A stretch of DNA of 64,000 nt, taken from Halichondria panicea. Lineage: Eukaryota; Porifera; Demospongiae; Suberitida; Halichondriidae. The position numbers and the translations under genes are program-made. Positions 3,672-52,347 of this stretch are shown one piece after another; the stretch's first letter is position 1; each line of letters begins with the position of its first letter. Under the pieces are notes generated by a model. That model ran no database searches. It had not been told where the DNA came from and saw nothing but the letters and a program-made list of their open reading frames with translations. The DNA lies in NCBI RefSeq assembly GCF_963675165.1, contig NC_087379.1, forward strand, positions 1,678,201-1,742,200, read 5' to 3'.

Positions 3672-3682
3672 TAACGAAGACA

Positions 3683-6600
3683 ATGGCTGTAAATCCACAA
3701 GCTTTCGAGCAGTTCACTCTGAGACAAATTCGCATCACTGAGAATGAGTTGGGACATGGTTCTTACGCTGTTGTCATGGAGCTAGAGTATCGAGGACTGA
3801 AATGTGCCGGCAAGAAGCTTTACCGAGTTCTCTACGAGACTGGAATCGGGCATGCAGCACGAAGGTATCTGGAGGAGTGTCACCTGCTCAGTCAAACTAG
3901 GCACCCCAACATTGTTCAGTTTCTGGGAGTCTGTTTTGAGGAAGGCTCTCAGTTCCCCATCCTAGTCATGGAATTCCTCCCCACCAACTTGACCAGCTGT
4001 CTCGAGCGCTACGGTATTCTCCCCGATGAGATCAACTTCTCCATCCTCCATGATGTCTCACTGGGCCTGGTCCACCTCCATGGCCAAACACCAGTCATTG
4101 TGCACAGAGACCTCTCAGCCAACAATGTCCTCTTGTCCACCAATATGACGGCCAAGATATCCGATCTGGGAGTTGCTCGAATATTGAACCTCACCCCCCT
4201 TCAAGTGAGTCGAATGACGGAGACCCCTGGTACCCCAGCGTACATGCCCCCCGAAGTGATGGTTGCCAACCCCCACTACGACACCAGTGTGGATGTGTTC
4301 TCCTTTGGAATCATGATGATTCACACCTTCACAGCAGAGTGGCCACTACCAAGTATCGGCCAGACACGAATCGATCCTGTTAATCCTGACAGACTGATAC
4401 CAGTGACAGAAGCTGAACGACGTGAAGAGTTTCTTCGGAAGATTCCACCAGACCACCCTCTGATGGACCTCATCATGCGCTGTCTCAGCAACAACCCTCA
4501 GCGAAGGCCTAGAGCAGCGGAGATAGTGGGTCGGATGGTTGGTGTGGTACTTGAACACCCTCCCTCCTTTGAGAACAGAGTGGAGATGCTCCAGCGAGTG
4601 AGTGCTCTACTGACAGAGAATAGGGAGCTTGAGGAGGAGTTTGTGAGGAAGGACTCGGCAATCCAGGAGAAAGCAGGAGAGAATGAGGCACTGGCGGAGG
4701 AAAAAAGACGACAAGAGGAAGAAAGTGAAAACACTGTCGAGCGTATGCAGTTGGTGCACTCTGTTGAAGCCGAACAACATCAAGCTATCATTGAAAATCT
4801 TAAAGGCCAGTTGATTTTCAATCAGGACATGATGGCTAAACTAGAAACTCAATATATACAACTCACTGAAGAGGTGGAGCAACAAATTGCTCACAAAGAT
4901 TTGATGCTTGCCTCTAAGGATTCTTACCTTCAGAAGAAGGAAGCCACCATTCAGAGTTTAAACGACCAGCTCACCAAAACCAGAGACTACCTGACCAGCA
5001 AACCACAGGTGAGCTCATCAACACTGTACCACTAAGTGCACACATCTAAAATATCCTTTTTCTTATTTTATCGCCACCCTAATTAATAGAAGTGCCAAGT
5101 CTGTTCCAATTGATTTTTTTTGCATTGTCTCGGTATGAAAATTGCCCTGTACATTATAGTGGCTTGTGTTCGGGGAAGGGCTATGTGTATTAACAATGGT
5201 GTACTCGTTATGTTCTTACGGTATACCATAGAATAAAGAATTGGAAGGAAGTGGTGCACGTGACCATTTAATACACAGAGGCCTCGAAAACTATCCGCTT
5301 TTCGTCATATTTTTGCCGGGTAATTCGCTCGTAATAAGAAAGCTGTGTTTCCCCGAGACATCATCCCTTCAGCAATTACGCCTTATTCTGTGAGCCACGT
5401 GTGGTACTAGCTAATGACTAACAACACCCAGTAAAAGGAAACATACACAGTAGAGTTATAAGCTTCAAAGTGATATTTTAGGGTCTTTGATTGCTAAACG
5501 TGTATATATATAAGCATCTTGGTAAAATAGGTATAGATCTTTAAATAGAAGTGAGCTGCACAGAATAAGCACATCTATTTATTCTCCACAGTGTGTAGAA
5601 ATATAGGCATCAGCTTGGCTACCTCGCAAACCACGCCACTTACAGATGCTTGGCTAAAGACAGCCTCTATTGAACCGCGGGGAAGAGCGGATGTTCATTC
5701 AAGGGTACTTTCGTTTCCAATCCCTCTATCCTTTATCTCTGGGTATAATTATTATACTAAGCACCTCTAATATAATCTATCTATATAAGCGTCAAATTAG
5801 TTCGTATTTGTATCCAAATATATATTTTTTACCGCTATAAAAAATAACTTTGTATCAGAACTCTGTCATCTGGCAATGCCGTATTCTCCAGTCCCTACAG
5901 GTTCAGTTATCCTACAGTCAGTGCTCTGAGGCTCCAGTAGAGATGTATGGTGGACTAGCGGTAACCATCAATGGCAAGGTCTACTATGGTGGAGGAAACT
6001 GTGATGACGATGATGGCATATACTGTGTCCACTGTTACGATCCGCCACAAGATGTCTGGTTAACTCTGCCTAGACTTCCTGTACACTATGTTGGTCTAGG
6101 GGAGGTCAAAGGTGAACTGGTAGCAGTTGGCGGTGTGGATTCATCCCGCTCTATATCCAATGTAGTACATGTGTTTGACAAAGGAAGAAACTGGAAACGG
6201 ACGATCCCACCCATGCCCACAGCGAGGTATTCAGCAGCATTTGTTAGTCTCCCAACACATCTGGTCGTAGCAGGAGGTCTGTTAGACTCTGGTGACTACA
6301 CTGATAATGTTGAGATCTACAACATCAGCACCTCCCAGTGGAGTGAGACAGACAGACTACAGTATGCTTGTTTTGGCCCAAGAGGAATTGTCTACAACAA
6401 CACAGTGTACCTAATGGGGGGACGTGTTGGCAAGAATCTAAACAAGGTGTGTGCTGCTCAAGTCGACAAGCTCATCTCAGCAGACCGACAGGATAATGGG
6501 AGTGCCAACAAAGCCGACTCTGTCTGGAATACACTATCCAACACACCGTCTTACCAGCCCTCCCCTGTAACGATATCCGACACCCTCTTTGCTGTTATTG

Positions 6601-6815
6601 GAAAGGATAGTGAAAATAAAACCACTCAAAAGATCTACGCCTACTCATCCTCGATGGACTCCTGGCTCTACATTGGTGATCTACCATCTCCTATAGCATA
6701 CGCTGCCACTGTGTCACTGTCTCCAACAGAGTGCCTTGTAATCGGAGGACTGAACAATGAATGTGAAAGACAATCAACTGTGCATAAAATTAAAAGTGCA
6801 ACAACCATTTCTTGA
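3683..6815 (+). CDS. Protein kinase-coiled coil-kelch fusion protein, copy 1
   Basis: Exons 3672-5008 (coding from ATG 3683) and 5901-6815 join in phase 0, giving about 746 residues. Residues 1-290 form a TKL-like Ser/Thr kinase. Visible motifs are the glycine loop GHGSYAVV (24-31), the lysine of CAGKK (44/45), a likely alpha-C Glu 64/65, HRDLSANN (141-148), DLG replacing DFG (161-163) and PPE replacing APE (189-191), so catalytic residues are present. Residues about 295-440 are charged coiled coil. The second exon has six kelch 'GG' motifs, expected to fold as a six-bladed propeller that binds partners; the fifth reads VIG instead of VGG. No signal peptide or membrane segment is seen, so the product is probably cytosolic. 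An in-frame ATG at 3620 lies inside the 5' UTR intron and was not used. Without splicing, the kinase exon reads into an 8-residue tail and stops at 5035. Substrate is unknown. Confidence 0.85.
5009..5900 (+). other. Intron between kinase and kelch exons, copy 1
   Basis: 892-bp phase-0 intron with donor CAG|gtgagc and acceptor ccctacag|GTTCAG. The first 24 bases keep an open frame (tail VSSSTLYH) in all four copies. About 5235-5745 holds a degenerate TIR element of the GATTGGAAACG family (ends 'gaattggaaggaagtgg' and 'cgtttccaatccctctatcc'), related to 31,368-31,883. Confidence 0.6.
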
Positions 6816-6936
6816 GTGTTTTGGTTTGTATAGCTCAAATGTTTATGATAATTGTTGAAATAATCATAATCATGTTGCATAGATACTTGCATGGTACACG
6901 ATAGAGGTTACCATGCATGCAGTGCATCATACAACG

Positions 6937-7292
6937 TAGTCGGGCGCCGCCGCCCTCTACCGTTGCCCGGAAGGAGGTCGGGAATCAAGCCTATCCACAG
7001 TTTTGTTCTGTTGTGTTGGAATTCCAACAATTCCACCAGCTCCAATCAGATTGCAGTATCTCAAGGGGATTGATCACACCCACTCAACTGTACCACGTGT
7101 GAATTTTACACACGTTGGATTGACTGAGAGGCGAGGCCAACACCCACTTTAATAAATTATATTCATCGCTATTGGTTAGCACCCACATAGAATGAATGAT
7201 ATTTCATGATACTATTGCGTAACAGGCCAGAACAAAACTGTTGATGAACTTGATTCCCGACCTCCTTCAAGGAGGGCGGTGACGCTCGACTA
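6937..7292. mobile_element. MITE, 356 bp, 9-bp TSD (family T1)
   Basis: Ends are tagtcgggcgccgcc and gacgctcgacta. A perfect 9-bp duplication CATACAACG flanks it (6928-6936 and 7293-7301). Subterminal arms 'gaatcaagcctatccacag' and 'gaacttgattcccgacc' match those of the copy at 1432-1650, and the extra length is internal. It sits just downstream of kinase gene 1. Confidence 0.85.
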
Positions 7293-7416
7293 CATACAAC
7301 GTACCATGCAGCCCTTCCCCCTTAATTATCATTGGACAACAAACACAAAACGTCAATTATACAAAAGTAAAAGTGAAAATAAACTTGATCATCGTTGTCA
7401 GTTGTAAGTTGTGAAA

Positions 7417-7951: not shown

Positions 7952-8012
<61 letters not shown>

Positions 8013-8017
8013 TGGGA

Positions 8018-8050
<33 letters not shown>

Positions 8051-11376: not shown

Positions 11377-11626
11377 GTACGTAAGATCAACTGAATAATA
11401 ATTATAATACCATAATTGCATGTGCTCCTGTAAGCCTGAACCTCACTGTCTGTATTTACTGAGGCTCAGGCTTACAGAAAAACAAAAGCCTTACAGACTG
11501 TAAGGCTTTTGTTTTTCTATTTATACTTTGCAAATGAATATAAGTATTATGTCTACACATAATATTATACCTAAGACCTCGATTTAAAGCGACACTTTTT
11601 AATAACTAGTGTTCAAGCTGGCGCTT

Positions 11627-12519
11627 TATGGAACGCCGTTTGTGACAAAATTCAGGCAGAATCTGATAGGCGTGTGCATCCAATATAAAATCGATTTTTG
11701 AAGATCGATTTTTAATAATCGATTTCTTACATTTGATTTTCGATTTACACGTGAACGATCTTTGACAATCGATCTGAAATTGGATTTTTGATAATCGATT
11801 ATTGAAATTCGATTTTTGAAAATCGATTAGATACTAGCCTCGAATCCAGGCCGATTAAAATGGATTCAAGGCTACAGTTAGGCCGCCCTTGAAACTCAAA
11901 ACATGCACAAACTCCTTCTCCGCGGCCTGGAATCAAAACTTGGCTTGGTTAGCTATCTCACATGATAGACTATAACGCAAAAGCGAAACATTATTGTTTT
12001 TTGGAACCATTAAAAAGGAGGGCCATAGCTAAGTCACAGTTAATTTTAGAACTGTTCAGTTGGTGCTATCTTATTTAGTTCCTTCGTGCACCCATTTTTG
12101 TATGCTTTCTCGCCAGCACTGTTTTATTTGGCCATCTTGTGTGTGCTTAGAGAAAGAGCTGAGAAAGAGTTTGGTGATTCCAGATAGAATAGAAGTCATG
12201 AATAGTGGCTTCTTCAATGCAAAATTTCTCTAAGGATAGTCTCACGTGATACAGCTTTAGACAGGGCCCCCCAGCCCACCTTCAGAGCAGTTCTAAAATC
12301 GATTATCAAAAATCAAATTTCAATAATCGATTATCAAAAATCGATTATCGAATTTCAAAAATCGATTGTCAGATCGATCGTCAAACATCGTTCACGTGTA
12401 AATCGAAAATCAACTGTAAAAAATCGATTATTAAAAATCGATCTTCAAAAATCGATTTTATATTGGATGCACACGCCTATCACATTCTGCCTGAATTTTG
12501 TCACAAACGGCGTTCCATA
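11627..12519. mobile_element. Foldback element with about 200-bp arms
   Basis: Left arm from tatggaacgccgtttgtgac, right arm ending with its complement. Arms are near-perfect for about 50 bp and continue imperfectly through 'cgattttt' motifs (11,690-11,830 and 12,300-12,470). The flank ggcgct repeats on both sides. The element splits a dispersed repeat whose uninterrupted version is at 37,430-37,470 ('gttcaagctggcg|ttgtgctaatg'), an effective empty site. Confidence 0.75.
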
Positions 12520-13232
12520 GGCGCTGTGCTAATGCCTCTCGCCATGATTTGCTTTCGCTCAAAAGTATAGAAGAGGAAGTATAGAAGATCTAGAGGAAGT
12601 ATAGAAGAGGAAGTATAGAAGAGGAAAAGTGTATAAAATAATCTGTCTAAAACTGACTTGCAGAAGAAAGCAGTCAAAAGGTTGGTTTGTGGCTTTAATA
12701 CCTGGACCTCAACAAAGAGAAGAAAATTGATTCAGATTCTGCCAGGATCTGGGGTTCAAAATGGATTCTCTTACACGTGGTATTGAGCGCGCATGCGCAT
12801 TAGATCTACATCCAGGAATAGGGGTGTGTCTGCAAGTTCAATAATGGCTACTTAAATAGCTAGCTTCTTTAGCAGCTCTTTCTAACTCTTGTAGCTAACA
12901 AAAAGCTAGCGCTTAAGTGCAAGGCTAACTTATAAGTTGAATAGAAAGTTTGTGCGAACTGATGATGCTATGAAGGATTCTGAAGAGACTGCAACAGCCT
13001 TCAATATGCAATGTGAGTCAAACTAGCCGAGAAAGAAGCTTTAGTTTGCTAATCCACGAATCAAAATCCAAGAGAACGTGGCTAGAAGCCTATAGAAGCT
13101 GTTAGTTTTCGTTGCATTGCAACCGTTGAGCAGTTATAGCTGGAATACACACACAGACAGACAGACAGACCAAAGATGTAGGAGGGACAGACACACATAT
13201 CCCTCATGCGGCTACGCCTCGAGGCATAATTA
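12520..13232 (+). repeat. Dispersed repeat R1 (SINE-like)
   Basis: From 'tgtgctaatgcctctcgcc' through 'tagctaacaaaaagctagcg' to the end 'ctacgcctcgaggcataat'. Recognisable copies or parts occur at 16,081-16,283, 34,687-35,110 with 36,835-37,156, 37,430-38,427, and on the minus strand at about 41,418-41,640. No coding frame. The shared 3' terminus suggests a retroposed family, but no pol III boxes were confirmed. Confidence 0.55.
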
Positions 13233-13971: not shown

Positions 13972-16900
13972 ATGGCTGTAGATCCACAAGCTTTCGAGCA
14001 GTTCACTCTGAGACAAGTTCGCATCACTGAGAATGAGTTTGGACGAGGTTCCTACGCTGTTGTCATGGAGCTAGAGTATCGAGGACTGAAATGTGCCGGC
14101 AAGAAGCTTCACCGAGTTCTCTACGAGACTGGAATCGGGCATGCAGCACGAAGGTATCTGGAGGAGTGTCGCCTGCTCAGTCAAACTAGGCACCCCAACA
14201 TTGTCCAGTTTCTGGGAGTCTGTTTTGAGGAAGGCTCTCAGTTCCCCATCCTAGTCATGGAGTTCCTCCCCACCAACTTGACCAGCTGTCTCGAGCGCTA
14301 CGGTATTCTCCCCGATGAGATCAACTTCTCCATCCTCCATGACGTCTCACTGGGCCTGGTCTACCTCCATGGCCAAACACCAGTCATTGTGCACAGAGAC
14401 CTCTCAGCCAACAATGTCCTCTTGTCCACCAACATGACGGCCAAGATATCCGATCTAGGGGTTGCTCGAATATTGAACCTGACCCCGAGTCGAATGACGG
14501 AGACCCCTGGCACCCAAGCGTACATGCCCCCCGAAGCGATGATTGCCAACCCCCACTATGACACCAGTGTGGATGTGTTCTCCTTTGGGGTCATGATGAT
14601 TCACACCTTCACAGCACAGTGGCCAAAACTAAATATCGGCCCCAACAGAATCGATCCTACCAATCCCAATGGTCTGATACCAGTGACGGAAGCTGAACGA
14701 CGCGAAGAGTTTCTTCAAAAAATTCCCCCAGAACACCCTCTGATGGACCTCATCATGCGCTGTCTCAGCAACAACCCTCAGCAAAGGCCTAGAGCAGCGG
14801 AGATAGTGGGTCGGATGGTGGGTGTGGCACTTGAACACCCTCCCTCCTTTGAGAACAGAGTGGAGATGCTCCAGCGAGTGAGTGCCCTACTGACAGAGAA
14901 GAGGGAGCTTGAGGAGGAGGTTGTGAGGAAGGACTCGGCAATCCAGGAGAAAGTAGGAGAGAACGAGGCACTGGCGGAGGAGAAAAGACGACAAGAAGAA
15001 GAAAGTGAAAACACTGTCGAGCGTATGCAGTTGGTGCACTCTGTGGAAACTGATCAGTTTAAATTGGAAAACGAAGATCTTAAAGGTCAACTCGAAGCTA
15101 AAGAGACTATTGTTAACACGAAAGATGAATTTATTATTTCAAGAAATGCTAGGATAGTGGAATTAGAAACTCGATGTAAGCAACTCACTGAAGAGGTGGA
15201 GCAACAAATTGCCAACGTCAACTACACTCAAAACGAGCTTGTATCTAAAGCTACGAAAATAGCTCAACTGGAAACAAATCTGGAACAGGAGCAAGCTTGT
15301 TTAGCTGACAAAAACTCTATTATTGCTCACAAAAATTTGACTATTGCTGACAATCAAAACGAACTGGTATCAAATGCTCTGAAAATTACTCAACTGGAAA
15401 CAAATGTCACCAATCTCACTGCACAAGTGGAACAAGAGCAAGCTTTTTTAGCTGACATTATTGCTCACAGAGAATCGATGCTTGCCTCCAAGGACACTTC
15501 CCTTCAGAAGAATAAAACCACCATTCAGAGTTTAAACAACCGACTCACCAAAACTAGAGACTACCTGACCAGCAAACCACAGGTGAGCTCATCAACACTG
15601 TACCACTAAGTGCAGTGGCAATGGAAGACCTGGAGCCCCCCCCCATATTATAAGTAGAGATGACTTATCAAAGCTGTACTATGTAGGTAGCCTTACTCAA
15701 AAAACTACAGCTCCCCCCCCCCCCCATTGAGAAATTGCTTCCTACGCCACTGCATCTAAACATGACTATCATATCTCTTATTGTATCACCACTCTAATAG
15801 AAGTAACTAACTGTTTAATGTTCCAATCGATCGCCAAGTACATATAGAATGGAAGTTGTTGTACATACTAACGTTCCACCAAGGTGTTTTGAAAATCATT
15901 TTTGCGATGCCTCGGCAATAAGAATCAATTGGCTACCGTATAATTTGTGAATATATTATGTTGCAGTATGATAATCACCATTATATAAATAACCCGAATA
16001 ATTTGTGTCCCACAGGATCGATTAATTTGCTGCTATGGTAATATATTCCAAATGTCCTTAATTACTATAGCTACGCAATCATAAAATGAATGTCTTCCAA
16101 CGAAGCATTATTTTGCAAATCCACGAATTAAAATCCAAGAAAACATGACTAGAAGCCTGTATAATAGAAACTCTTACTTGCACTTGATTCATCCTTGAGC
16201 AGTTATAGCAGTCTACACACACAGACACACAAACACACTACCGTATATACCTCGCTTGCGCATGCGCACCGAGGCATAATCACATGCAACACACAAGTTA
16301 TTGACTCTCTGTATTCTCCAGTACCTACAGGTTCAGTTGTCCTGCAGTCAGTGCTCTGAGGCTCCAGTTAAGATGTTTGGTGGACTAGCGGTAACCATCA
16401 ATGGCAAGGTCTATTATGGTGGAGGAGTCTGTGATGACGATGATGACGAGTACTGTGTCCACTGTTACGATTCGCTACAAGACGTCTGGTCAACTCTGCC
16501 CAGACTTCCTGTATGCTATTTTGATCTAGGAGAGGTAAACGGTCAACTGGTAGTAGTTGGTGGTAAGGATTCATCCGGCTCTAGATCCAATGTGGTACAT
16601 GTGTTTAACAAAGGAAGGAACTGGAAACAGACGATCCCACCCATGCCCACAGCGAGGATTTCACCAGCAGTCGTTAGTCTCCCAACACATCTTGTCGTAG
16701 CAGGAGGTGTGGTCTCTGGTGACTACACTGATAATGTTGAGATCTACAACATCAGCACCTCCCAGTGGAGCGAGACAGACAGACTACCGTATGCTTGTTG
16801 TGACCAAAGAGGAATTGTCTACAACAACACAGTGTACCTAATGGGGGGGGGATCTGACGGTAAGCATCTAAACAAGGTGTTAGCTGCTCAAGTTGACAAG

Positions 16901-17251
16901 CTCATCTCAGCAGAGCGACAGGATGATGGGAGTGCCAACAAAGCCGACTCGGTCTGGAATACAATATCCAACACACCGTCTTATTACCCCTCCCCTGTAA
17001 CGATATCCGACACCCTCTTTACTATTGGTGGAAAAGATAGTGGTGAAGCCACTCAAAGGATCTACGCCTACTCAACCTCGATGGACTCCTGGCTCTATGT
17101 TGATGATCTACCATCTCCTATAGCATACGCTGCCACTGTGTCACTGTCTCCAACACAGTGCCTTATGATTGGGGGACGTAACAATGAAGGACAAAAACAA
17201 TCTACCGTCTATAAAATTAGTAACGCAGGCGCAGCAACTATTTTGGCTTAA
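13972..17251 (+). CDS. Protein kinase-coiled coil-kelch fusion protein, copy 2
   Basis: Exons 13961-15582 (ATG 13972) and 16331-17251 join in phase 0, giving about 843 residues, the longest of the four. The kinase domain matches copy 1: glycine loop GRGSYAVV, CAGKK lysine, HRDLSANN, DLG and MPPEAM. It lacks three residues (LQV) in the activation segment. The coiled coil spans roughly residues 290-535. It is expanded with repeated blocks such as 'NELVSKATKIAQLET' and 'NELVSNALKITQLET'. The kelch exon has all six motifs (GGGVCDDDD to MIGGRNNEG). The acceptor-linked start was chosen because 'taacgaagacaATGG' is shared by all copies. No lesion is seen, so this is probably a functional gene. Substrate and partner are unknown. 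Confidence 0.85.
15583..16330 (+). other. Intron between kinase and kelch exons, copy 2
   Basis: 748 bp, donor CAG|gtgagc and acceptor cctacag|GTTCAG. Holds a C-run (about 15,713-15,725) and, at 16,081-16,283, a truncated R1 repeat ending 'caccgaggcataat'. The open tail VSSSTLYH follows the donor as in the other copies. Confidence 0.6.
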
Positions 17252-17622: not shown

Positions 17623-18306
17623 TTAAATCGGAAATAGTAATCTACAGAAGTGAAGGTGAAAGCGAGACTGGATAAAATTAATCAATGGGAAGTCAAATTT
17701 CTTCCTCATTTCTAGAGCAGCTTTTGTCTCCTCGTCCTTTGTTGCCAGACACGACTTCCAGTTGATCCGATTGGGCAAATTCAGAACGAGAGGAGCAGCC
17801 AACACCTCCCTGCAGCCGATATTGCAACCAATAAAAGCATTCAACATGTCATTAATTGGTTTTTAATTACCTTCCAAATTGGAGAGAGAAACGTCCGTAC
17901 GTATTGTTCCAGGAACTAGAACAGTTTGTGTGTTCACTCGATAGGTATGATGACAGATTTGTGGAAGAGACATTTGCTGAGTATGCAATAGAAAGGTTAG
18001 AGGTGTGCATTGTCGGTGTGACGAGACTCACGGATATGTTCTTACCTACTCACTTGAGAGTGCTGTTTACCTCATGAGCTCAAAGTAGTAGAAACATACT
18101 ATAACCTATATTCAGTGATCTGGTTGTTTGTCTGCGTAAGTTGGTGAGAAAATGGTCTTGTGAACACATTTTTCCCATCATCAAACTCTGCCAGGAAGTA
18201 TGGGACACCAGTGTATGCAAGCTGTGTGTGTGTATGTATGTGTGTGGGAGGGGGGAGGGAGTGTGTGTAGCAGATTCTGGCAAAGAGAAGTATCGATCAC
18301 TAAAAG

Positions 18307-18892
18307 GCTTAGCCTCGATTCCAAGCAGCATTAAAATACGGCCTGGTACCTATTGCATGGGTGATAGTGCGTGCGCATGCGCTTCAAAATTACAATATGG
18401 GTAGTCGTACTACGAACGTAAAATCTTAGTAATTAAATTATACCGTTTACTAAGAATAATAACGTTTCTTTATCTCCATGACTGAGTTCTGTGAAGCTGT
18501 GGCTTATGTATTGGTCTAGAAGCCTTGAACACTAATTTAAAGACAGAAGAGGCTCTCATCTACTATATCTAGGATGGTCCTATAGCCGGGTTGTCTTCAC
18601 ACGTAGCAGTTAAGAGGCACCATACACTTCCCATAGCCTGTACAGATCCAAGCTAAGACATCCTGACTATCCTGACCATACAACCGTCATAAAGGTAGAT
18701 GAGAGCCTCTTCTGACTTTAGACTAGTGTGAAAGCCTTCTGAAACAACGCAATACTAAGCTGATGTACATAGATAGAAAATAGATGAGAGAAAAAAAGGA
18801 GGATTCCCCAGATTCTGGTGAATAAACTAACGCATGCGCACTATCACCATGCAATAGGTACCAGGCCGTATTTTAATCGGCCTGGAATCGAG
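18307..18892. mobile_element. TIR element with nested foldback, about 586 bp
   Basis: Ends 'gcctcgattccaagcagc' and 'cggcctggaatcgaggc' are inverted, with 'acggcctggtacctattgc' mirrored by 'gcaataggtaccaggccgt'. Inside, about 18,519-18,741 is another inverted pair around 'agaagaggctctcatctac'. It lies in an intron of CWF19L1 copy B. Related sequence, partly inverted, occurs at 43,378-43,955. Confidence 0.6.
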
Positions 18893-21879: not shown

Positions 21880-23875
21880 AAGATCAATGTGTCCTATAAA
21901 CCTGAGCCTCACTGCAGATCTGTACTGTAAGGCTTTGTTTTGCTATTAATTAATAATAATTAATTAATCACTTTTTTATTACTTTGGCTTCTATATCCAG
22001 CTGAATTCCCTATTAATATTCTTTTTTCTATTAACACAGTAACGAATACAATGGCTGTAAATCCACAAGCTTTCGAGCAGTTCACTCTGAGACAAATTCA
22101 CATCACTGAGAATGAATTTGGACGAGGTTCCTACGCTGTTGTCATGGAGCTAGAGTATCAAGGACTGAAATGTGCCGGCAAGAAGCTTTACCGAGTTCTC
22201 TACGAGACTGGAATCGGGCATGCAGCACGAAGGTATCTGGAGGAGTGTCACCTGCTCAGTCAAACTAGGCACCCCAACATTGTCCAGTTTCTGGGAGTCT
22301 GTTTTGAGGAAGGCTCTCAGTTCCCCATCCTAGTCATGGAGTTCCTCCCCACCAACTTGACCAGCTGTCTCGAGCGCTATGGTATTCTCCCCGATGAGAT
22401 CAACTTCTCCATCCTCCATGACGTCTCACTGGGCCTGGTCTACCTCCATGGCCAAACACCAGTCATTGTGCACAGAGACCTCTCAGCCAACAATGTCCTC
22501 TTATCTACCAACATGACGGCCAAGATATCCGATCTGGGGGTTGCTCGAATATTGAACCTGACTCCCCTTCAAGTGAGTCGAATGACGGAGACCCCTGGCA
22601 CCCCAGCGTACATGCCCCCCGAAGTGATGGTTGCCAACCCCCACTACAACACCAGTGTGGATGTGTTCTCCTTTGGGATCATGGTGATTCACACCTTCAC
22701 AGCAGAGTGGCCACTACCAAGTATCGGCCCCACCAGAATCGATCTCCTGCTAATCCTGACAGACTGATACCAGTGACGGAAGCTGAACGACGTGAAGAGT
22801 TTCTTCGAAAAATTACCCCAGACCACCCTCTGATGGACTTCATCATGCGCTGTCTCAGCAACAACTCTCAGCAAAGGCCTAGAGCAGCGGAGATAGTGGG
22901 TCGGATGGTGGGTGTGGCACTTAAACACCCTCCCTCCTTTGAGAACAGAGTGGAGATGCTCCAGCGAGTGAGTGCCCTACTGACAGAGAAGAGGGAGCTT
23001 GAGGAGGAGGTTGTGAGGAAGGACTCGGCAATCCAGGAGAAAGCAGGAGAGATCGAGGCACTGGCGGAGGAGAAAAGACGACAAGAGGAAGAAAGTGAAA
23101 ACACTGTCGAGCGTATGCAGTTGGTGCACTCTGTGGAAACTGATCAGTTTAAATTGGAGATTGAAGATTTTAAATGTCAACTCGAAGATAAAGAGATAAT
23201 TTTTAACATGAAAGATACTACAATCGCTAGGTTAGAAACTCGATGTAAGCAACTCACTGAAGAGGTGGAGCAACAAATTGCCAACGTCAACTACACTCAC
23301 AACGAGCTTGTATCTAAAGCTACGAAAATAGCTCAACTGGAAACAGATGTCACCAATCTCGCTGCACAAGTGGAACAGAAGCAAGCTCGTTTAGCTGACC
23401 AAAACACTATTATCGTTCACAAAGATTTTACTATTGCTGACAAAGATTCGATGCTTGCCTCCAAGGACACTTACCTTCAGAAAAATAAAACTACCATTCA
23501 CAGTTTAAACGACCAACTCACCAAAACTAGAGACTACATGACCAGCAAACCACAGGTGAGCTCATCAACACTGTACCACTAAGTGCACACATCTAAAATA
23601 ATTATGATACCCTCATAATAATTATTATGATTATCACCACCCTAATAGAAGTACCAAGTACAAATCTTACTGTTCCAATACAGCACCATATTCTTTTTGC
23701 GATGCCTCGGTAATTGTTGTTGTGTAGTGTGGCTTGTAATAATGGCATGGTAATACAATTACTCTTAGTGTAGCCATCTGTATTGTATGCTAATCACTAC
23801 TCCGAATCATAAGCGCCAATAGCCAATAATATAGGGCTATATTTAGTGGTTCAAGGTTACCATAGTATAACTATA

Positions 23876-24068
23876 CCTTATAGTGGGTATTTTTCATTGG
23901 TTCATATGCCTATTTAAAATTTTCATATTCGTACAGCTCAGGATAGTGACGTTGAACATAATTATTGTGCCAGAAAAATTTTGCTGTTTAAATTTTCATA
24001 TGAGCTCTACTGATAATTATGAAAAGTACAAACATTTTCACCATACGAAAATAACCCTCTATATACGA
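23876..24068. mobile_element. Degenerate family P MITE
   Basis: Left end ccttatagtgggtatttttc and right end 'aaataaccctctatatacga' resemble the ccgtatagcggg family, with flanking TA. More diverged than the copies at 19,784 and 20,407, so an older insertion. Confidence 0.55.
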
Positions 24069-24149
24069 TATTTGTGTCGAGCCTACAGGATGCTTATAAT
24101 ATATTATTTGTTGCTATGGTAACCTTGACCTAATAGCCCTCTTGTCTGA

Positions 24150-24912
24150 TAGACTCGCAAGCCACTCCCTTTTCTCTGATTGGACGGGGGCGGGAGAAAA
24201 GGGACTGGTGACTCTGGGACACATTTTGTGTCTCTACCAGAATTTGGGTAGAGATTATTCATTGATTTTTCCACGTGATCCAAAAATTGCGTGAGGTTAA
24301 GTAGAATTGCGTAGCCTGCAAAAGTGATCGCGGGCTTCTTAGCTACAGTTTAAGAATGGATGCTAGTGCTAGAAAAGAGAAGATGATGGAGTAATAACAT
24401 CATCAGGCATTCAGCTAGGATATAGTCATCTAAGACACCAGCAGAGATTAGCTTGTTTTAGTTTTACGTGATGAGAACTGGCAGCCGAAAGTCATTGGTT
24501 GCCTAAAGCTTTTAATAACCTGTACAATACAAGACAGATAATGGCAGACGGCAGCAGTTGAATTGAGAGTAGTCAGACTTGTACAAGCTGTCTTAAATCG
24601 CTGCCACTCCTCGGTTCAAAGAAGGACTGCCAAGATTTCTACGTTCATCAGCTGTTCCATGCTAATCCACAAGTTGTGGCACAACAGACACTGGTACAAG
24701 GATCTATAAAATCAAAAGGCTGGCTAGATAGATCTGTATACTTGTCTTCTGTGTGTCTTTAGCTTTTGACGCATCAGAATAAATTGGATAATTTGCACGT
24801 GACATTAATATTTAATAGCATTCCTGATTTTCACAAGCTGTAGCCCAGAGTCACCAGTCCCTTTTCTCCCGCCCCCGTCCAATCAGAGAAAAGGGAGTGG
24901 CTTGCGAGTCTA
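24150..24912. mobile_element. TIR element, 763 bp, 9-bp TSD
   Basis: Ends tagactcgcaagccactccc and gggagtggcttgcgagtcta extend as inverted repeats of about 70 bp (through 'gacgggggcgggagaaaag'). The 9-bp duplication CTTGTCTGA is perfect (24141-24149 and 24913-24921). No transposase frame. Family T1 also has 9-bp duplications and ends beginning tag, so the two may share a mobiliser (inference). Confidence 0.9.
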
Positions 24913-26100
24913 CTTGTCTGAGTGAACCTTACATTGATTCCCTGTTATTAGATATGCCCCTAATCACATGCAACACACAAGTTATTGACTCTCTGTATTC
25001 TCCAGTCCCTACAGGTTCAGTTGTCCTACAGTCAGTGCTCTGAGGCTCCAGTGAAGATGTCTCGTGGGCGAGCAATAACCATCAATGGCAAGGTCTACTA
25101 TGGTGGAGGAGTCTGTGATGATGAGTACTGTGTCCACTGTTACGATCCGCCACAAGACGTCTGGTCAACTCTGCCCAGCCTTCCTGTACGCTATTTTGGT
25201 CTAGTGGAGGTCAAAGGTGAACTGGTAGCAGTTGGCGGTATGGATTCATCATTCTCTAGATCCAACGTGGTACATGTGTTTAACAAAGGAAGAAACTGGA
25301 AACGGACGATCCCACCCATGCCCACAGCGAGGGATTCACCAGCAGTCGTTAGTCTCCCAACGCATCTGGTCGTAGCAGGAGGTGATGTGGCCTCTGGTGG
25401 CTACACTGATAATGTTGAGATCTACAACATCAGCACCTCCCAGTGGAGTGAGACAGACAGACTACCGTATGCTTGTCGTGGCCTAAGAGGAATTGTCTAC
25501 AACAACACAGTGTACCTAATGGGGGGATTTGACCTCTTTATTCTAAACAAGGTGTGTGCTGCTCAAGTCGACAAGCTCATCTCAGCAGACCGACAGGATG
25601 ATAGGAGTGCCAACAAAGCCGACTCTGTCTGGAATACAATATCCAACACACCGTCTTACCGGCCCTCCCCTGTAACGATATCCGACACCCTCTTTGCTGT
25701 TGGTGGAATGGATAGTGAACGTAAAGCCACTCAAATAATCTACGCCTACTCATCCTCGATGGACTCCTGGCTCTACGTTGGTGATCTACCATCTCCTATA
25801 GCACACGCTGCCACTGTGTCAATGTCTCCAACAGAGTGCCTTATGATTGGGGGAGAAAACAATAATGAAGAAGATCAATCTACTGTGTATAAAATGAGAA
25901 CCACAACAACTATTTCTTATTTATATTATGGTATGATATTTTGTATGACTCAAATCAAACTCTGGACTCAAATGTTGATAACAGATGAAAGGTTTTGTGT
26001 GTAACCAGCCCCTCCCCCTTAGATTATTGCAATGTCAGCATAAACGACCCTCTTCCACATACGTGTACAGCTCAATGGTTCTCCTGATGAAGACACTAAC

Positions 26101-32569: not shown

Positions 32570-35500
32570 ATGGCTGTAAATCCACAAGCTTTCGAACAGT
32601 TTACTCTGAGACAAATTCGCATCACTGAGAATGAGTTTGGACGAGGTTCCTACGCTGTTGTCATGGAGCTAGAGTATCGAGGACTGAAATGTGCTGGCAA
32701 AAAGCTTTACCGAGTTCTCTATGAGACTGGAATCGGGCATGCAGCACGAAGGTATCTGGAGGAGTGTCACCTGCTCAGTCAAACTAGGCACCCCAACATA
32801 GTCCAGTTTCTGGGAGTCTGTTTTGAAGAAGGCTCTCAGTTCCCTATCCTAGTCATGGAGTTCCTCCCCACCAACTTGACCAGCTGTCTCGAGCGCTACG
32901 GTATTCTCCCCGATGAGATAAACTTCTCTATCCTCCATGACGTCTCACTGGGCCTGGTCTACCTCCATGGCCAAACACCAGTCATTGTGCACAGAGACCT
33001 CTCAGCCAACAATGTCCTCTTGTCCACTAACATGACAGCCAAGATATCTGATCTGGGGGTTGCTCGAATATTGAATCTGACCCCCCTTCAAGTGAGTCGA
33101 ATGACAGAGACCCCTGGCACCCCAGCGTACATGCCCCCCGAAGTGATGATTGCCAACCCCCACTACGACACCAGTGTGGATGTGTTCTCCTTTGGGATCA
33201 TGATGATTCACACCTTCACAGCAGAGTGGCCACTACCAAGTATCGGCCAGACACGAATTGATCCTGCTAATCCCAATGGTCTGATACCAGTGACGGAAGC
33301 TGAAAGACGTGAAGAGTTTCTTCGAAAGATTCCCCCAGACCACCCTCTGATGGACCTCATCATGCGCTGTCTCAGCAACAACCCTCAGCGAAGGCCTAGA
33401 GCAGCGGAGATAGTGGGTCGGATGGTGGGTGTGGTACTTGAACACCCTCCCTCCTTTGAGAACAGAGTGGAGATGCTCCAGCGAGTGAGTGCCCTACTGA
33501 CAGAGAAGAGGGAGCTTGAGGAAGAGGTTGTGAGGAAGGACTCGGCTATCCAGGAGAAAGCAGGAGAGATCGAGGCACTGGCGGAGGAGAAAAGACGACA
33601 AGAGGAAGAAAGTGAAAACACTGTCGAGCGTATGCAGTTGGTGCACTCTGTGGAAACTGATAAACTAGTAACTGAACACAGTGTAGAGATAGAGGATCTC
33701 AGAGTTGCATTGGAGTTTAAAGAATCATTGGCTCCCACGTGCACAAAAGATGCACTGGTGAATTCTAAAGATACTACCATCGCTAGGTTAGAAACTCGAT
33801 GTAAGCAACTCACTGAAGAGAGGAAGCAACAAATTGCCAACACTAACAACGAGCTTGTATCTAAAGTTACGAAAATAGCTCAACTGGAAACAGATGTCAC
33901 CAATCTCACTGCACAAGTGGAACAAGAGATAGCAGACAAAAACTATCTTATCACCTACAAAGATTTGACTATTGCTGACAAAAACTCCACTATTTTTGCT
34001 AAAGATTTGATTATCACTAACAAAGATTTGATGCTTGCCTCCAAGGACACTTCTCTTCAGAAGCATAAAACCACCATTCAGAGTTTAAATGACCAACTTA
34101 CCAAAACCAGAGACTACCTGACCAGCAAACCACAGGTGAGCTCATCAACACTGTACCACTAAGTGCACACATCTAATTTATATCGCTACTCCAATAGAAG
34201 TGCCAAGTCAGTGGCGTAGGCAGAGGGGGGCTGACGGGGCTAGAGCACCCCCATTTGTGTTTCATTAACTCCAAACCAATCTATTCTGCACTGTACTGCA
34301 TGATTGTGTATAGTTACTAGAATGGAAATGTGGGCAGGGTCATCTACTGCGCATGCTTACTGCTGATGAAAAGTGATGACCTTTTTTTTAGGTGAAATTC
34401 CAAGCTATTCAGCGCCTGCTCTGGCCCTGCTCAATGGATTTGAGCCCTGCCCTTCCCAAAATCCTGGCTACGCCACTGCAAGTCTAAAGCTCATAATGAA
34501 TTGATGGCCATGCATGACAACTGTGTTGTATTGCAGCGTGTAATCCAGGCTATGTGATTCTTGTTAGTGTGTCACTTACTTCCATTGTAGTGAGCCACAG
34601 GCATATCTCCTATTGCCACCCTAACTAGTGTTCAATCTGCACTGTAAAAACAAATGGGTTATTTCAACCAATTTGTTTTTACAGTGTGGCGCTGTACTAA
34701 TGCCTCTCGCCATGTTTTTGCTTTCGCTGAAAAGTATTAGAGTTTTATATTAGTTTCTATTTTATATTAAAGTTAGCTTATCTATATAAAGTCGCTGAGA
34801 AGAAAAGACTTATTTACATGCATCTATTGTTGTATTATGTGGCTTACTAGGACCTCAAGAAAGAAGAAAATTGATTCTTCCAGGATCTGTAGTTCAGTGT
34901 ATATAATGTCTAAGAAGAAAAGACCTGTGTACATGCACATTGTTATCTATGGTAGTGTTTTGTGGCTTACCAGGCCTTCAAGATAAAGATGATTCTGCCA
35001 GGAGGATCTGGATCTGGATCTGGATATTATTTCTCACACATGGGGGAATGAGCGCGCATGCGCATTACATTCACAGGAATAATTAAAGGGTGTATCCAAA
35101 GAGATCAATTTCACAAATGCTACAGAGTTTTTCAGGTTGCTTGCAACAATTAATTGTGGAAATTTAACTCACGTGATGTTTTGCTCACGTGCCTTATGCC
35201 TTAATTAGCTTATAAGAGTGGGTGGGAGAGAAATGACAGCAAAAAACAGCAGAAGTTGTTCAGTGTTCATACAAATGAAGAGTGATAATCTGACACTGTA
35301 ATGCTGTGCAATATATTTTGTCAAATTCGTACAGGTTCGTCTAGACTTTTTAAAGACAGATCCTCAGAAAATACTCAACTCAGCAGTAAAACAGAAGAAT
35401 TGGGAGCCAGCCTACAGGATTCTAGGATTGCAGTATATATTAAATTTTGTTGGAGAGCATATAGGATTTCTCCAGCATACACACAATTCTTTAATAATAA

Positions 35501-38500
35501 TTATTGTATGTATGCTGGTAAATTATGCTCTCCAGCAAGTAATACTACACTACAGATCTAAGATCCCACTCACTTCTTCTCTGAGGGTCTAGCAACTTAA
35601 AGTCTAGTACAAAGCTTTGAATGTGTGTTGTTCAGCTAGCTACAATCTAGCTACAATGCCTGCCCCTCCCACTTTAATTTTGACTTATAAGGCTGAGGCA
35701 CGTGAGCAAAACACACGTGAGTCAAATTTCCACAATGCAAGCAACCTGAAAAACTATGTTCTGCTAGCTAGCTGTTTTAATGGTGATATTAACAGGAACG
35801 TTTCCATATGCTGACTTGGCACTTTCTAATTATGATCGCCCTCTATATATTTTCTTGTGCTATCAGGAGCACAAGAGTGCTCCCTGGCCCTCTGGAGTGC
35901 CCCTGGTGCTATCAAGAGCCTTATAAATTTATTGTATGTAAGCCAATCCTATTAAATACATCATGGCTGAGTTAGTGGTTCATAATTATGGTTTCAGTAT
36001 TGATCATCTTGCATGTTGGAGGAGGCATGCATAAACATTTGAAACACATGCTTTGCTTCCAAGTTTCATTGATTACCACAGTCATGGTACAGAGACTATT
36101 AATGCACATTCGATGTAAACTTGTAACAGAAATTATGTTCAGGGAAGTGAAGTGAAGTGAAAAGTTATCATGTATAGTGAGGCTGCATGTATCCCACGTT
36201 TCTTCCTCTGGAAACTCTCAGCTGAAAAGTGATAATTGTTATTAGAATAAAAAAAAAGCTGCTTACTTTTTTATTGAGATGCATCACTGGCAGCCATAAC
36301 CCTTCTGTCTCCAGCCCTATATAGCGATAGAAAAAGACATTCGGCTATAGGATAGTCATACCACGCTCCAAACAGGTATAAACCAAGAAGATGCTCACGA
36401 GTTCATGCTGGCAATTCTTGACATAATCAACAGCCACCTACATACAGTACACTACTACCTGTAGTTGTATAGAAGCAAGTATTGATAAAGTGTAGTAATA
36501 ATCAGACTGAGGTTCCTCCTTTTTATATACCTTTTACCTTCTTACAAGTAGATGAGTCTGGTCCACAGTAGTGTATATGCATGAGTCTAGTCTCTGGAAG
36601 AATCATTGACATGAGCCGCGCCGCTCTGCCTCACTAGAACCAAGAGTTTATGATAGATAAACTCTTCCTAGAACTACATGTAGCCAGCTGATTTAAAATT
36701 GCATATAGAGTGCTGAGTCAGCAACAAAATAATAGTGTCAATATTCGTTGAGTCAGCATATGGAAACCTTCCTGTTAATATCATCATTCCCTGTTATTAT
36801 CGCCTTTCTTTTTAACAGATATTTTCTGAGTATTGTAGCTAACAAAAAGCTAGCGTTTTAGTGCAAGGCTAACTCATATGTTGAATAGAAAGTTTGTGCG
36901 GACAGATGATGCTATGAAAGATTCTGAAGAGACTGCAACAGCCGTCAATGTGAGTCAAACTAGCCATAACTCGAGAAAGAAGCTTTAGTTTGCTAATCCA
37001 CGAATCAATATCCAAGAGAACGTGGCTAGAAGCCTATAGAAGCTGTTAGCTTTCGTCGCATTGCAACCGTTGAGCAGTTACAGCTGGAACAGACACACAG
37101 ACCACACACAGTCAGCTTTACCGTATCCCTCTTGCGGCTACGCCTCGAGGCATAATAAAAGCTAGTGCCAAGTCTAAAGCTTACTGTTATTGAACGCCAA
37201 ATCATTTTATTTGTAATGCTTGTGTAATTAGAATGACAGTTGTTGTGTATTATTATGTGGCTTATAATCTATGTGTACAATACAGTCATAGCTATGCGTA
37301 CACGTACATGTATAACGTGTACAATTATTTCTATAGTATAATTAGCCATGTACGTGAATTTCACCACTCCAATATAAGAGCCAAATTAGAATAATTAATT
37401 TGTGTCCCACAGGATCGATAACTGATAATAACTAGTGTTCAAGCTGGCGTTGTGCTAATGCCTCTCGCCATGATTTGCTTTCGCTCAAAAGTATAGAAGA
37501 GGAAAAAGTGTATAAAATAATCTGTCTAAAATGATTTGCATCTATTCAATTGTATAATTATGGTATCATTGTTGTGTTTTGTGGCTGCTTATATATACCA
37601 GGATCTTAAGGATCTAGGAAGCAACAAAGAAGAAGATTTTGTTTTCAATTAATTATAAGCGGAAGTGCATAATTTTACTAATTATTTCATAAAGTTAGCT
37701 TATCTATATAAAGTCACTGAGAAGAAAAGACTTATTACATGCATCTATTGTTGTATTATGTGGCTTTAATACTAGAACCTCAAGAAAGAAGAAAATTGAT
37801 TCTTCCAGGATCTGTACTTCAGTGTATAATTATAATATCTAAGAAGAAAAGACTTGTGTACATGCATATTGTTATCTATATTGTTATATAGTAGTGTTTT
37901 GTGGCTTACCAGGCCCTCAAGAAAAATATAATTCTGCCAGGAGGATCTGGATCTGGATCCTTGGATATCACACGTGGGGAATGAGCGCGCATGCGCATTA
38001 CATCCACAAGAATAATTAAAGGGTGTGTCCAAAGAGATCAATGGCTACTGCTAGCTAGCTGTTTTAACAGGTATTTTCTGAGTCTTGTAGCTAACAAAAA
38101 GCTAGCGCTTTAGTGCAAGGCTAACTTATATGTTGAATAGAAAGTTTGTGTGGACAGATGATGCTATGAAAGATTCTGAAGAGACTGCAACAGCCTTCAA
38201 TGTGAGTCAAACTAGCCATAACTCGAGAAAGAAGCTTTAGTTTGCTAATCCACGAATCAAAATCCAAGAGAACGTGGCTAGAAGCCTATAGAAGCTGTTA
38301 GTTTTCGTCGCACTGCAACCGTTGAGCAGTTACAGCTGGAACAGACACACACACACACAGACAGACAGACACACACACAGTCAGCTTTACCGTATCCCTT
38401 GTGCGGCTACGCCTCGAGGCATAATAATTTTTTTAGTAACCTTGTAACATTATCATCTGGCGTTAATATGTGATTAGGGTTACATTTCAAATGCCCTTAA

Positions 38501-39487
38501 TTACTAGCTACACAATCATAAATGTCTTCCATTACACACAAGTTATTGACTCTCTGTATTCTCCAGTCCCTACAGGTTCAGTTGTCCTACAGTCAGTGCT
38601 CTGAGGCTCCAGTGAAGACGTCTGGTGGGCAAGCGGTAACCATCAATGGCAAAGTCTACTATGGTGGAGGAGGCTGTGATGATGATGATGACAACTACTG
38701 TGTCTACTGTTACGATCCGCCACAAGACGTCTGGTCAACTCTGCCAAGATTTCCTGTACGATATTTTGGTCTAGGGGAGGTCAAAGGTGAACTGGTAGCA
38801 GTTGGCGGTGTGGATTTATCCCGCTCTACATCCAATGTAGTACATGTGTTTAACAAAGGAAGGAACTGGAAACGTACGATCCCACCCATGCCCACAGCGA
38901 GGTTTTCATTAGCAGTCGTTAGTCTCCAAACACATCTGATTGTAGTAGGAGGTGATGTGGGCTCTGGTGACTACACTGATAATGTTGAGATCTACAACAT
39001 CAGCACCTCCCAGTGGAGCGAGACAGACAGACTACCGTATGCTTGTATTGGCCAAAGAGGAATTGTCTACAACAACACAGTGTACCTAATGGGGGGATCT
39101 GACGGCAAGAATCTAAACAAGGTGTGTGCTGCTCAAGTCGACAAGCTCATCTCAGCAGACCGACAGGATGATGGGAGTGCCAACAAAGCCGACTCTGTCT
39201 GGAATACAGTATCCAACACACCGTCTTACCGGCCCTCCCCTGTAACGATATTCGATACCCTCTTTGCTGTTGGTGGAAAGGATAGTGGTGAAGCCACTCA
39301 AAGGATTTACCCCTACTCATCCTCGATGGACTCCTGGCTCTACGTTGGTGATCTACCATCTCCTATAGCATACGCTGCCACTGTGCCACTGTCTCCAACA
39401 CAGTGCCTTATTATTGGGGGAATGAACAAAGAAAGAGAAAGACAATCGACCGTCTATAAAATTAGTATCACAAAAACTGTTTTTTGA
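32570..39487 (+). CDS. Protein kinase-coiled coil-kelch fusion protein, copy 4
   Basis: Exons 32559-34135 (ATG 32570) and 38576-39487 join in phase 0, giving about 825 residues. Kinase residues 1-290 carry GRGSYAVV, CAGKK, HRDLSANN (141-148), DLG (161-163) and MPPEVM. The coiled coil runs to about residue 520. Its distal part has short repeated blocks (KDLTIADKNSTI, KDLIITNKDLML) different from those of copies 2 and 3. The kelch exon keeps all six motifs (GGGGCDDDD to IIGGMNKER). No lesion is seen. The 4.4-kb intron is the largest of the family and is filled with repeats, yet both splice sites match the other copies. A possible poly(A) signal lies 144 bp past the stop. Probably cytosolic; function inferred from domains only. 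Confidence 0.85.
34209..34478. mobile_element. TIR element, family C5, 270 bp
   Basis: Ends cagtggcgtaggcag and 'ctggctacgccactg'; perfect 5-bp duplication CAAGT (34204-34208 and 34479-34483). Internal block shared with 31,180-32,200. Confidence 0.85.
34640..34686. mobile_element. 47-bp palindromic insertion
   Basis: cactgtaaaaacaaa pairs with tttgtttttacagtg around a short centre. It interrupts the R1 sequence 'gttcaagctggcg..gctaatgcc', seen intact near 37,440, so it looks like a minimal mobile palindrome. Confidence 0.6.
35124..35770. mobile_element. TIR element with cacgtgagcaaaac arms
   Basis: 'tttttcaggttgcttgc' near 35,129 and 'gcaagcaacctgaaaaac' near 35,738 are inverted. So are 'gttttgctcacgtgcct' and 'aggcacgtgagcaaaac'. 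Arms are about 65 bp. The centre has an AT-rich palindrome. The 86-codon frame at 35,301-35,561 has no recognisable domain and is not called. Confidence 0.6.
36835..37156 (+). repeat. Dispersed repeat R1, copy
   Basis: Begins about 'tagctaacaaaaagctagcg', ends 'ctacgcctcgaggcataat'. About 90% similar by eye to 12,880-13,230 and 38,080-38,427. Confidence 0.65.
37430..38427 (+). repeat. Dispersed repeat R1, longest copy
   Basis: Carries the 5' part ('taactagtgttcaagctggcg', 'tgctaatgcctctcgccatg') without the insertions seen at 11,627 and 34,640, then the 3' part ending 'ctacgcctcgaggcataat'. Internal duplications of 'aagaagaaaattgattcttcc' type blocks. Useful as empty-site reference. Confidence 0.6.
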
Positions 39488-52309: not shown

Positions 52310-52347
52310 CTACAACACACAAAATTAATGGTCATTATATGATTAAA

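What the first reader, a model, noticed from the sequence alone, without database searches (positions are those of the whole stretch)
3672..39487. Four tandem kinase-coiled coil-kelch fusion genes
Each copy has the same two coding exons, joined in phase 0 at identical splice sites. They encode a TKL-like kinase (with DLG and PPE variants), a coiled coil and a six-motif kelch propeller in one polypeptide. I know of no standard animal kinase family with this architecture, so it may be a lineage-specific signalling family. A role in partner-selective signalling or immunity is only inference.
Basis: partly seen in the sequence, partly recalled or inferred. Interest (0 to 1): 0.75.

Follow-up and report, generated by a model that had tools for sequence, protein, structure and literature searches.

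The report
Hypervariable kinase-kelch gene arrays
Four neighbouring genes that join a signalling enzyme to a propeller-shaped sensor belong to a family of some hundreds of copies in this genome, and the sensor's predicted binding surface changes from copy to copy far faster than the rest, as expected of receptors that must keep up with changing targets.

Summary
The four kinase-coiled coil-kelch genes are real, though copy 3 carries a frameshift as assembled. They are the edge of an interrupted 0.85-Mb array: 49 exact copies of the splice-donor sequence lie at C3:867-1712 kb, and 47 of 47 kinase matches there are followed by a kelch match on the same strand. Three further array families share the architecture. 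The C1/C6 genes add an N-terminal Death domain; in C16 genes kinase, coiled coil and kelch lie in one open frame (one read in full, 746 aa), so the fusion does not rest on predicted splicing.

The new result is how they evolve. The kinase is conserved (dN/dS 0.26). The kelch propeller is hypervariable around the positions equivalent to Keap1's Nrf2-binding pocket in all three families tested: dN/dS 2.4, 3.6 and 3.0 at 24 face codons (p 2e-6 to 1.4e-5). A hydropathy scan shows no membrane helix. Best reading: diversified intracellular recognition receptors, probably immune, that signal through a TKL kinase. Transcripts, host species, ligands, structure and function are untested. My literature searches found no description.

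The parts
3683..5008 (+). copy 1 exon 1: TKL-like kinase plus coiled-coil region
   Evidence: ORF; Pfam; donor
5901..6815 (+). copy 1 exon 2: six-motif kelch propeller, stop included
   Evidence: ORF; Pfam; acceptor
5009..5900 (+). copy 1 phase-0 intron, 892 bases, GT..AG
13972..15582 (+). copy 2 exon 1: kinase plus coiled coil
16331..17251 (+). copy 2 exon 2: kelch
22051..23555 (+). copy 3 exon 1: kinase plus coiled coil, broken by a frameshift near 22745
25015..26004 (+). copy 3 exon 2: kelch, open, with a longer C-terminal tail
32570..34135 (+). copy 4 exon 1: kinase plus coiled coil
34136..38575 (+). copy 4 intron, 4440 bases, carrying two repeats (36810-37102, 38062-38354) of a family also seen at 12866-13158
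38576..39487 (+). copy 4 exon 2: kelch

Best explanation
The genes encode cytosolic receptors of a large, diversifying recognition family. The kelch propeller binds a ligand in the pocket at its loop face, as Keap1 binds Nrf2. The coiled coil brings copies together. The TKL kinase, with its catalytic motifs kept, then phosphorylates a downstream partner. In the C1/C6 sister family an N-terminal Death domain would recruit Death-domain adaptors, as in IRAK/Pelle and RIPK signalling. New ligand specificities arise by tandem duplication, amino-acid replacement at a few positions per blade, and exchange of kelch exons between kinases. The most likely ligands are microbial or viral proteins, or host proteins they disturb. 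Shown here: architecture, array size, conservation of the kinase, and an excess of amino-acid changes on the predicted ligand face. Inferred: expression, oligomerisation, ligand binding, signalling and immune role.
For: Kinase followed by kelch in 47 of 47 C3-array kinase matches; 20000 random orderings gave at most 20 of 26 and 17 of 21. One-frame kinase-coiled coil-kelch ORF. Intron at the coiled-coil/kelch border, phase 0 by my reading, in six paralogous loci (L030, L031, L032, L034, L035, L061). Catalytic motifs kept. C3 dN/dS: kinase 0.26, coiled coil 0.49. Keap1-contact registers -15, -14, +1, +6 around GG: score reached by 11 of 58905 offset sets (itself included) in C3 and in C1/C6 and by 3 of 58905 in C11. 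Face dN/dS 2.40, 3.55, 2.98, p 2e-6, 2e-6, 1.4e-5. Face codon heterozygosity at positions 1/2/3: 0.41/0.37/0.17 in C3 and 0.34/0.37/0.15 in C1/C6, against 0.06-0.07 elsewhere. Death exon profile: 11 PDB hits at E<=5, all FADD, best 0.0014. Death exon upstream of 82 of 86 C1 kinase matches; controls 0 and 0. Highest 19-residue hydropathy 1.21 in exon 1, 1.65 in kelch, 0.97 in the Death exon.
Against: No transcript, expression, ligand or infection data. The +6 register is not the peak of its loop: +5 and +7 vary more in C3, +3, +7 and +8 in C1/C6, +4 in C11. In C11 the rest of the propeller shows no constraint either (dN/dS 1.14, p 0.29). Synonymous variation is also somewhat raised at face codons. 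Gene conversion violates a single-tree count. Pfam's Death model hits only 3 of 13 members weakly (best E 0.041). Heptad periodicity is weak (5 of 19). Some copies elsewhere in the array hold stops or are partial. Allorecognition or recognition of self proteins would leave the same signature.
Confidence: 0.6

Rival explanations
1. Allorecognition: the variable kelch faces tell own from foreign tissue or cells of the same species, with the kinase signalling rejection.
Against: No membrane helix in a hydropathy scan, so the sensor is probably inside the cell; arrays lie on several contigs (C1, C3, C6, C11, C16) rather than at one compatibility locus.
Confidence: 0.17
2. House-keeping signalling family whose kelch domains bind many different endogenous partners (for example adaptor functions for development or stress), diversified after duplication and then fixed.
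For: Kelch domains of KLHL proteins serve such roles (established knowledge, recalled); kinase conserved.
Against: Recent divergence: C3-type kelch exons differ by 8.8% on average in DNA, yet face dN/dS is above 2 in three families in parallel; identical and near-identical duplicates exist.
Confidence: 0.15
3. Relaxed constraint or a local mutational process in surface loops, with no functional diversification.
For: Neighbouring loop positions are also variable; pS is raised at face sites (0.166 against 0.088 in C3, 0.112 against 0.088 in C1/C6; 0.173 against 0.089 in C11); some genomic copies carry stops or are partial.
Against: Non-synonymous excess over neutral expectation, p 2e-6 to 1.4e-5; third codon positions rise about two-fold while first and second rise five- to seven-fold; 22 of 22 C3-type kelch exons read in full are open.
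Confidence: 0.06
4. Kinase and kelch exons are separate genes that merely alternate in the array.
For: No RNA evidence; exon 1 can be read 8 codons past the donor to a stop.
Against: Conserved donor and acceptor and an intron at the same border in divergent paralogues, and one-frame fusions in C16.
Confidence: 0.02

Closest known systems
Keap1 and other KLHL Kelch domains
   Same: Six-motif kelch propeller; the variable residues fall at or beside the registers of Keap1's Nrf2-contact residues (contacts partly from passages of PMC6891428, partly recalled)
   Different: No BTB or BACK domain found in the exons scanned; a TKL kinase takes their place; large recent arrays with a replacement excess on the face
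IRAK/Pelle and RIPK kinases
   Same: TKL-type kinase (solved relatives include CTR1, TNNI3K, RIPK2, TAK1, IRAK1); the C1/C6 sister family has Death domain then kinase
   Different: The kelch sensor in the same chain; window genes show no Death domain
Animal NLRs, e.g. the NLR repertoire of the sponge Dysidea avara (PMC12909245; start of abstract and passages seen)
   Same: Family of receptors, some with an N-terminal Death domain and a C-terminal repeat sensor (DEATH-NACHT-LRR)
   Different: No NACHT and no leucine-rich repeats in the proteins scanned; kelch propeller and kinase instead
Plant tandem kinase and kinase fusion resistance proteins (e.g. wheat Lr9, PMC10260399; title and start of abstract seen)
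   Same: A kinase fused to another domain that confers pathogen resistance
   Different: No shared sensor known to me; plant genes; that they are few per genome is recalled, not checked
Wheat NLRs with integrated kinase or kelch domains (PMC7422411; passages seen)
   Same: Kinase and kelch domains both occur as integrated domains of plant immune receptors
   Different: They are added to an NB-ARC receptor; there is none here
GPCR-TKL/K receptors of choanoflagellates (PMC12716839; passages seen)
   Same: Sensor domain fused to a TKL-related kinase, in numbers, in a relative of animals
   Different: Seven-helix membrane sensor; the word kelch does not occur in that paper's main text

Membership tests
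TKL protein kinases | Protein kinase fold with catalytic Lys, HRD, DFG-type Asp, APE-type Glu | tested here: met
   Pkinase E 1.2e-35 to 7.6e-41; these motifs 20 of 20 with DLG and PPE variants, glycine loop 19 of 20
TKL protein kinases | Closest relatives are TKL members | tested here: inconclusive
   Best solved matches CTR1 and TNNI3K (TKL), then WNK (not TKL), with BIK1, RIPK2, TAK1 and IRAK1 among the 60 of 2512 shown; no tree was built
Kelch propeller proteins | Repeated kelch motifs with double glycine, six blades | tested here: met
   Kelch_1 E 2.1e-21 to 2.7e-25; six GG registers in the consensus
Kelch propeller proteins | Beta-propeller fold | not testable with these tools
   Structure prediction accepted no jobs
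KLHL/Keap1 (BTB-BACK-Kelch) | N-terminal BTB and BACK domains | tested here: not met
   Only kinase families found in exon 1; only kinase and kelch-type families in the one-frame C16 protein. Unseen upstream exons are not excluded for the window genes
IRAK/Pelle/RIPK | Death (or related) domain with a TKL kinase | tested here: not met
   Window exon 1 starts directly with the kinase and has no Death hit; met only in the C1/C6 sister family
NLR receptors | NACHT or NB-ARC nucleotide-binding domain and LRR | tested here: not met
   Not found in Pfam scans of kinase, kelch and Death exons
Receptor-like kinases | Signal peptide and transmembrane helix | tested here: not met
   Highest 19-residue hydropathy 1.21 in exon 1, 1.65 in kelch; simple hydropathy scan, no signal-peptide predictor

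The most novel reading that the evidence does not exclude
A previously undescribed class of animal intracellular immune receptors: up to roughly 300 kinase-coiled coil-kelch genes in one genome, some with a Death domain, whose six-blade propellers form an evolvable binding site with several hypervariable positions per blade, diversified in parallel in several arrays. It would be an animal counterpart to plant NLR or kinase-fusion resistance families, with a beta-propeller as variable sensor and direct kinase output.
Probability: 0.5. Interest if true: 0.92.

Novelty: new variant of a known kind. Interest (0 to 1): 0.82.

Why it matters
How early-branching animals recognise a changing microbial world without antibodies is an open question. 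This points to a sensor type (kelch propeller) and an output (kinase in the same chain) that are not among the usual NLRs, TLR-like and scavenger receptors. The variable positions are known residue by residue, so ligand-binding and signalling tests can be designed at once, and the array offers natural variation for association with infection, symbiosis or graft outcome. It is also a natural experiment on evolving binding specificity on one fixed scaffold in parallel gene families.

Tried and rejected
Separate-genes reading: rejected for the architecture because C16 copies are one frame.

Targeted hypermutation (third codon positions should then vary as much as first and second): not supported; at face codons third positions vary far less. 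A milder local rise in mutation is not excluded.

Pfam for the Death exon: no hit for the first member and 3 of 13 weak hits. Read as Death from a profile against solved chains.

Relatives elsewhere: none confirmed in viral contigs or genome contigs. These collections are viral and prokaryotic, so this says little.

Literature: ten searches, each showing at most 20 rows, of lists up to 2142 papers. None of the rows shown describes a kinase-kelch family of this kind; one search was for Keap1 contacts only. The Amphimedon genome paper is not held, and its kinome material could already mention such genes.

Order of work, told against myself: I saw the variable columns of the C3 and C1/C6 sets before I wrote the register test. 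The registers come from Keap1, not from those columns, but only the C11 test used a set fetched afterwards, of whose 12 sequences I had already read two. In C11 blade 1 has RG and blade 4 GQ in place of GG; leaving out blade 4 gives 2 of 58905. Keap1 contacts R380, N382, N387, G509 and G603 are from recall. The other contacts appear in passages of PMC6891428, which writes Gly530 where the verified chain has Gln.

Samples and dropped rows: dN/dS sets are 22 kelch exons of about 50 in the C3 array (those in sequence held), 13 of 170 in C1/C6, and 12 of about 31 in C11, the last two chosen by me from the better-scoring rows. 3 of 23 donor-bearing exon-1 ends were left out of kinase counts (truncated at C3:1058588, interrupted at 945987, frameshifted window copy 3). 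One of 20 lacked the anchor for coiled-coil length. Two of 22 kelch exons cross 10-kb cuts and are missing from alignment A2, which was used for no result. In one search the second pieces of two split genes were left out. In one search the 86 kinase rows are those of 91 C1 rows listed (three distant ones and two second pieces left out). Kelch places there were the 89 C1 rows among the 100 listed of 170, plus 85 C1 rows, so 65 of 86 is a lower bound.
Full report
What is in the window. Four copies stand in tandem on the + strand. Exon 1 of each encodes a TKL-like kinase and a long charged helix-rich region; exon 2 encodes a six-motif kelch propeller. Copy 3 has the same splice sites (23555 to 25015) but a 2-base insertion near 22745 breaks its kinase frame as assembled. 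So 3 of 4 copies are intact.

The array. The window is C3:1678201-1742200 of a 131-Mb, 39-contig assembly. The 21-base donor sequence has 51 exact matches in the genome, 49 of them at C3:867-1712 kb: 27 on the minus strand (867-1170 kb) and 22 on the plus strand (1244-1712 kb), with gaps at about 1.17-1.24 and 1.29-1.51 Mb. Counting up to 3 mismatches there are 62 places against 2 for the reversed control. A kinase query gives 55 matches that cover at least 232 of 286 residues at 80% identity or more, 46 of them in that interval, plus fragments; a few carry stops. Taking 47 kinase and 50 kelch places there, every kinase place (26 of 26 and 21 of 21) is followed on its own strand by a kelch place, starts 1.6 to 6.1 kb apart; 3 of 50 kelch places have no kinase before them. 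Shuffled orders gave at most 20 and 17. Among these kelch places some are partial and two genes carry a stop. The window sits at one end of this array.

Wider family. Further kinase-kelch genes exist. (a) C1 and C6: a kelch 27-mer gives 170 places with up to 3 mismatches against 0 for the control. Of 86 C1 kinase places, 82 have a further exon within 1.6 kb upstream and 65 a kelch place downstream (61 both); the controls gave 0 (that exon downstream), 0 (opposite strand) and 5 (kelch upstream). (b) C11: kinase-coiled coil then kelch in both loci read (L032, L061), with about 31 kelch places at 45% identity or more, mostly on C11. (c) C16: one uninterrupted frame of 746 aa, C16:4484318-4486555 minus, holds kinase (Pkinase 2e-37, residues 30-305), a coiled-coil-like stretch and kelch (Kelch_1 5e-16). 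Twelve of 15 C16 kinase matches share a frame of the same length and strand with a kelch match nearby, and 23 of 36 typed C16 kelch matches lie in frames of 700 aa or more. (d) Single genes on C10 (L030, L031) and more distant ones on C3 (L034, L035). In L030, L031, L032, L034, L035 and L061 an intron can be placed at the coiled-coil/kelch border; reading the printed sequences it is phase 0 in each. Adding about 50, 170, 31 and 48 gives about 300 kelch places, fragments included. Protein searches score only the best candidates, so these are lower bounds for matches, while pairing with a kinase was tested only for the sets named.

The Death domain. The extra exon of the C1/C6 group has no Pfam hit in its first member and weak Death hits in 3 of 13 members. 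A profile of 13 members finds 11 solved chains at E 5 or better, all of them FADD, best 0.0014. It is read as a Death domain on that basis. In L059 Death and kinase share one 488-aa frame. That frame reads through a stretch which in L029 looks like a short GT-AG intron.

How the genes evolve. From sequence held (200 kb of the C3 array, the window, and one copy of the C3 type on C16) I extracted 23 exon-1 ends and 22 kelch exons. All 22 kelch exons are open. Pairwise counts give dN/dS 0.24 for the kinase (20 copies), 0.44 for the linker and coiled coil, and 0.92 for kelch. Tree-based counts give 0.26, 0.49, and for kelch 2.40 at 24 face codons against 0.74 in the other 280. The face codons are the registers -15, -14, +1 and +6 around each GG that hold most of Keap1's Nrf2-contact residues (some contacts recalled). 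Of 58905 possible sets of four offsets 11 score as high in C3, itself included; the same count was found for the C1/C6 group (13 kelch exons), and 3 for C11 (12 kelch exons). The peak within the loop after GG+1 is not at +6 in any of the three sets, so the match to Keap1 is to the face and loops, not residue by residue. Tree-based face dN/dS is 3.55 in C1/C6 (rest 0.71) and 2.98 in C11 (rest 1.14, not different from 1). At the residue after GG, 9 of 12 columns in C3 and C1/C6 hold 7 to 12 different amino acids (the others 6, 4 and 3), and in 5 of the 12 every codon keeps the same third base: in C1/C6 column 82 all 13 codons end in T and spell seven amino acids. A raised mutation rate alone would hit third positions equally. 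They rise about two-fold at face codons, while first and second rise five- to seven-fold.

Exchange of parts. The copies at C3:918091 and 1031725 differ by 4.1% in the kinase and 0.9% in kelch, which suggests that kelch exons can move between kinases. Over all 20 paired copies the two distances are still correlated (Spearman 0.43). Neighbours within 15 kb (13 pairs) are no more alike than distant copies in the kinase (4.4% against 4.1%) and only slightly in kelch (8.1% against 8.8%).

Mechanism proposed. A hydropathy scan shows no membrane helix in exon 1, kelch or the Death exon. Catalytic lysine, HRD, DLG and PPE are kept in 20 of 20 copies and the glycine loop in 19. A variable ligand face joined by an oligomerising rod to a conserved kinase is the layout of a sensor with fixed output. 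The Death-domain sister group points to the signalling logic of IRAK/Pelle and RIPK (established knowledge, recalled). I commit to intracellular recognition receptors, probably immune (0.6); allorecognition (0.17) and endogenous partner diversification (0.15) are the serious rivals. Steps shown: architecture, array, replacement excess on the face. Steps inferred: expression, binding, oligomerisation, signalling, immune role.

Comparison with what is known. It works like Keap1-type kelch binding and like Death-kinase signalling, but it is neither a KLHL protein (no BTB found) nor, for the window genes, an IRAK/RIPK (no Death domain found). NLR domains were not found in the proteins scanned. None of the rows shown by ten literature searches describes such a family (Tried and rejected lists them); the Amphimedon genome paper is not held. 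A recent sponge NLR paper (PMC12909245) has no occurrence of kelch in its main text, and a choanoflagellate paper on kinases fused to receptors likewise has none. One sponge study of exposure to microbial patterns (PMC6208332, passages) lists two kelch-motif genes with lowered expression among its changed genes; whether these are of the present kind is unknown, and the direction does not by itself favour an immune role.

Limits. There are no transcripts. No structure could be predicted. Face positions are assigned by register, not by coordinates. Gene conversion makes single-tree counts approximate, although three families agree. The coiled coil is supported by composition more than by periodicity (5 of 19 copies at p<0.05). 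Only the C11 register test used data fetched after the test was written.

Noticed in passing
window 48825-62905 (+): Five ORFs with LRAT (lecithin retinol acyltransferase) domains in tandem, E 2e-18 to 4e-24: a second tandem family directly beside the kinase-kelch array.
   Followed up: no
window 11627-12519: Inverted repeat with 200-base arms 90% complementary around a 493-base centre, and further long inverted repeats (e.g. 18223-18392 with 43359-43528); may be fold-back mobile elements between the copies.
   Followed up: no
L023-L024 and L025-L026 (C3:1008058-1011159 and 1030105-1033206); C16:4484318 and 4502512: A pair of C3 genes 22 kb apart with no difference in kinase or kelch exons, and a pair of C16 genes 18 kb apart with identical kelch protein: very recent duplication, conversion, or duplicated haplotype in the assembly.
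   Followed up: partly
own genome C28 (small contig): Carries Death, kinase and kelch exons of the C1/C6 type; may be an unplaced or alternative haplotype of the C6 array, which would show copy-number variation.
   Followed up: no
own genome C15:683-768 kb; C12:5.9-6.14 Mb; C3:8.28 Mb; C7:82-108 kb: More distant relatives of the C1-type kinase (about 44% identity, seven on C15 and one on C10) and of the Death exon (33-40%, C12, C3, C7), several in clusters, so Death and kinase families are expanded further.
   Followed up: no
window copies, L009-L028 and L036, 3' part of exon 1: The coiled-coil region varies from 133 to 245 residues between 19 copies, by eye through in-frame gain and loss of short KDxxIxxK-like units.
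   Followed up: partly
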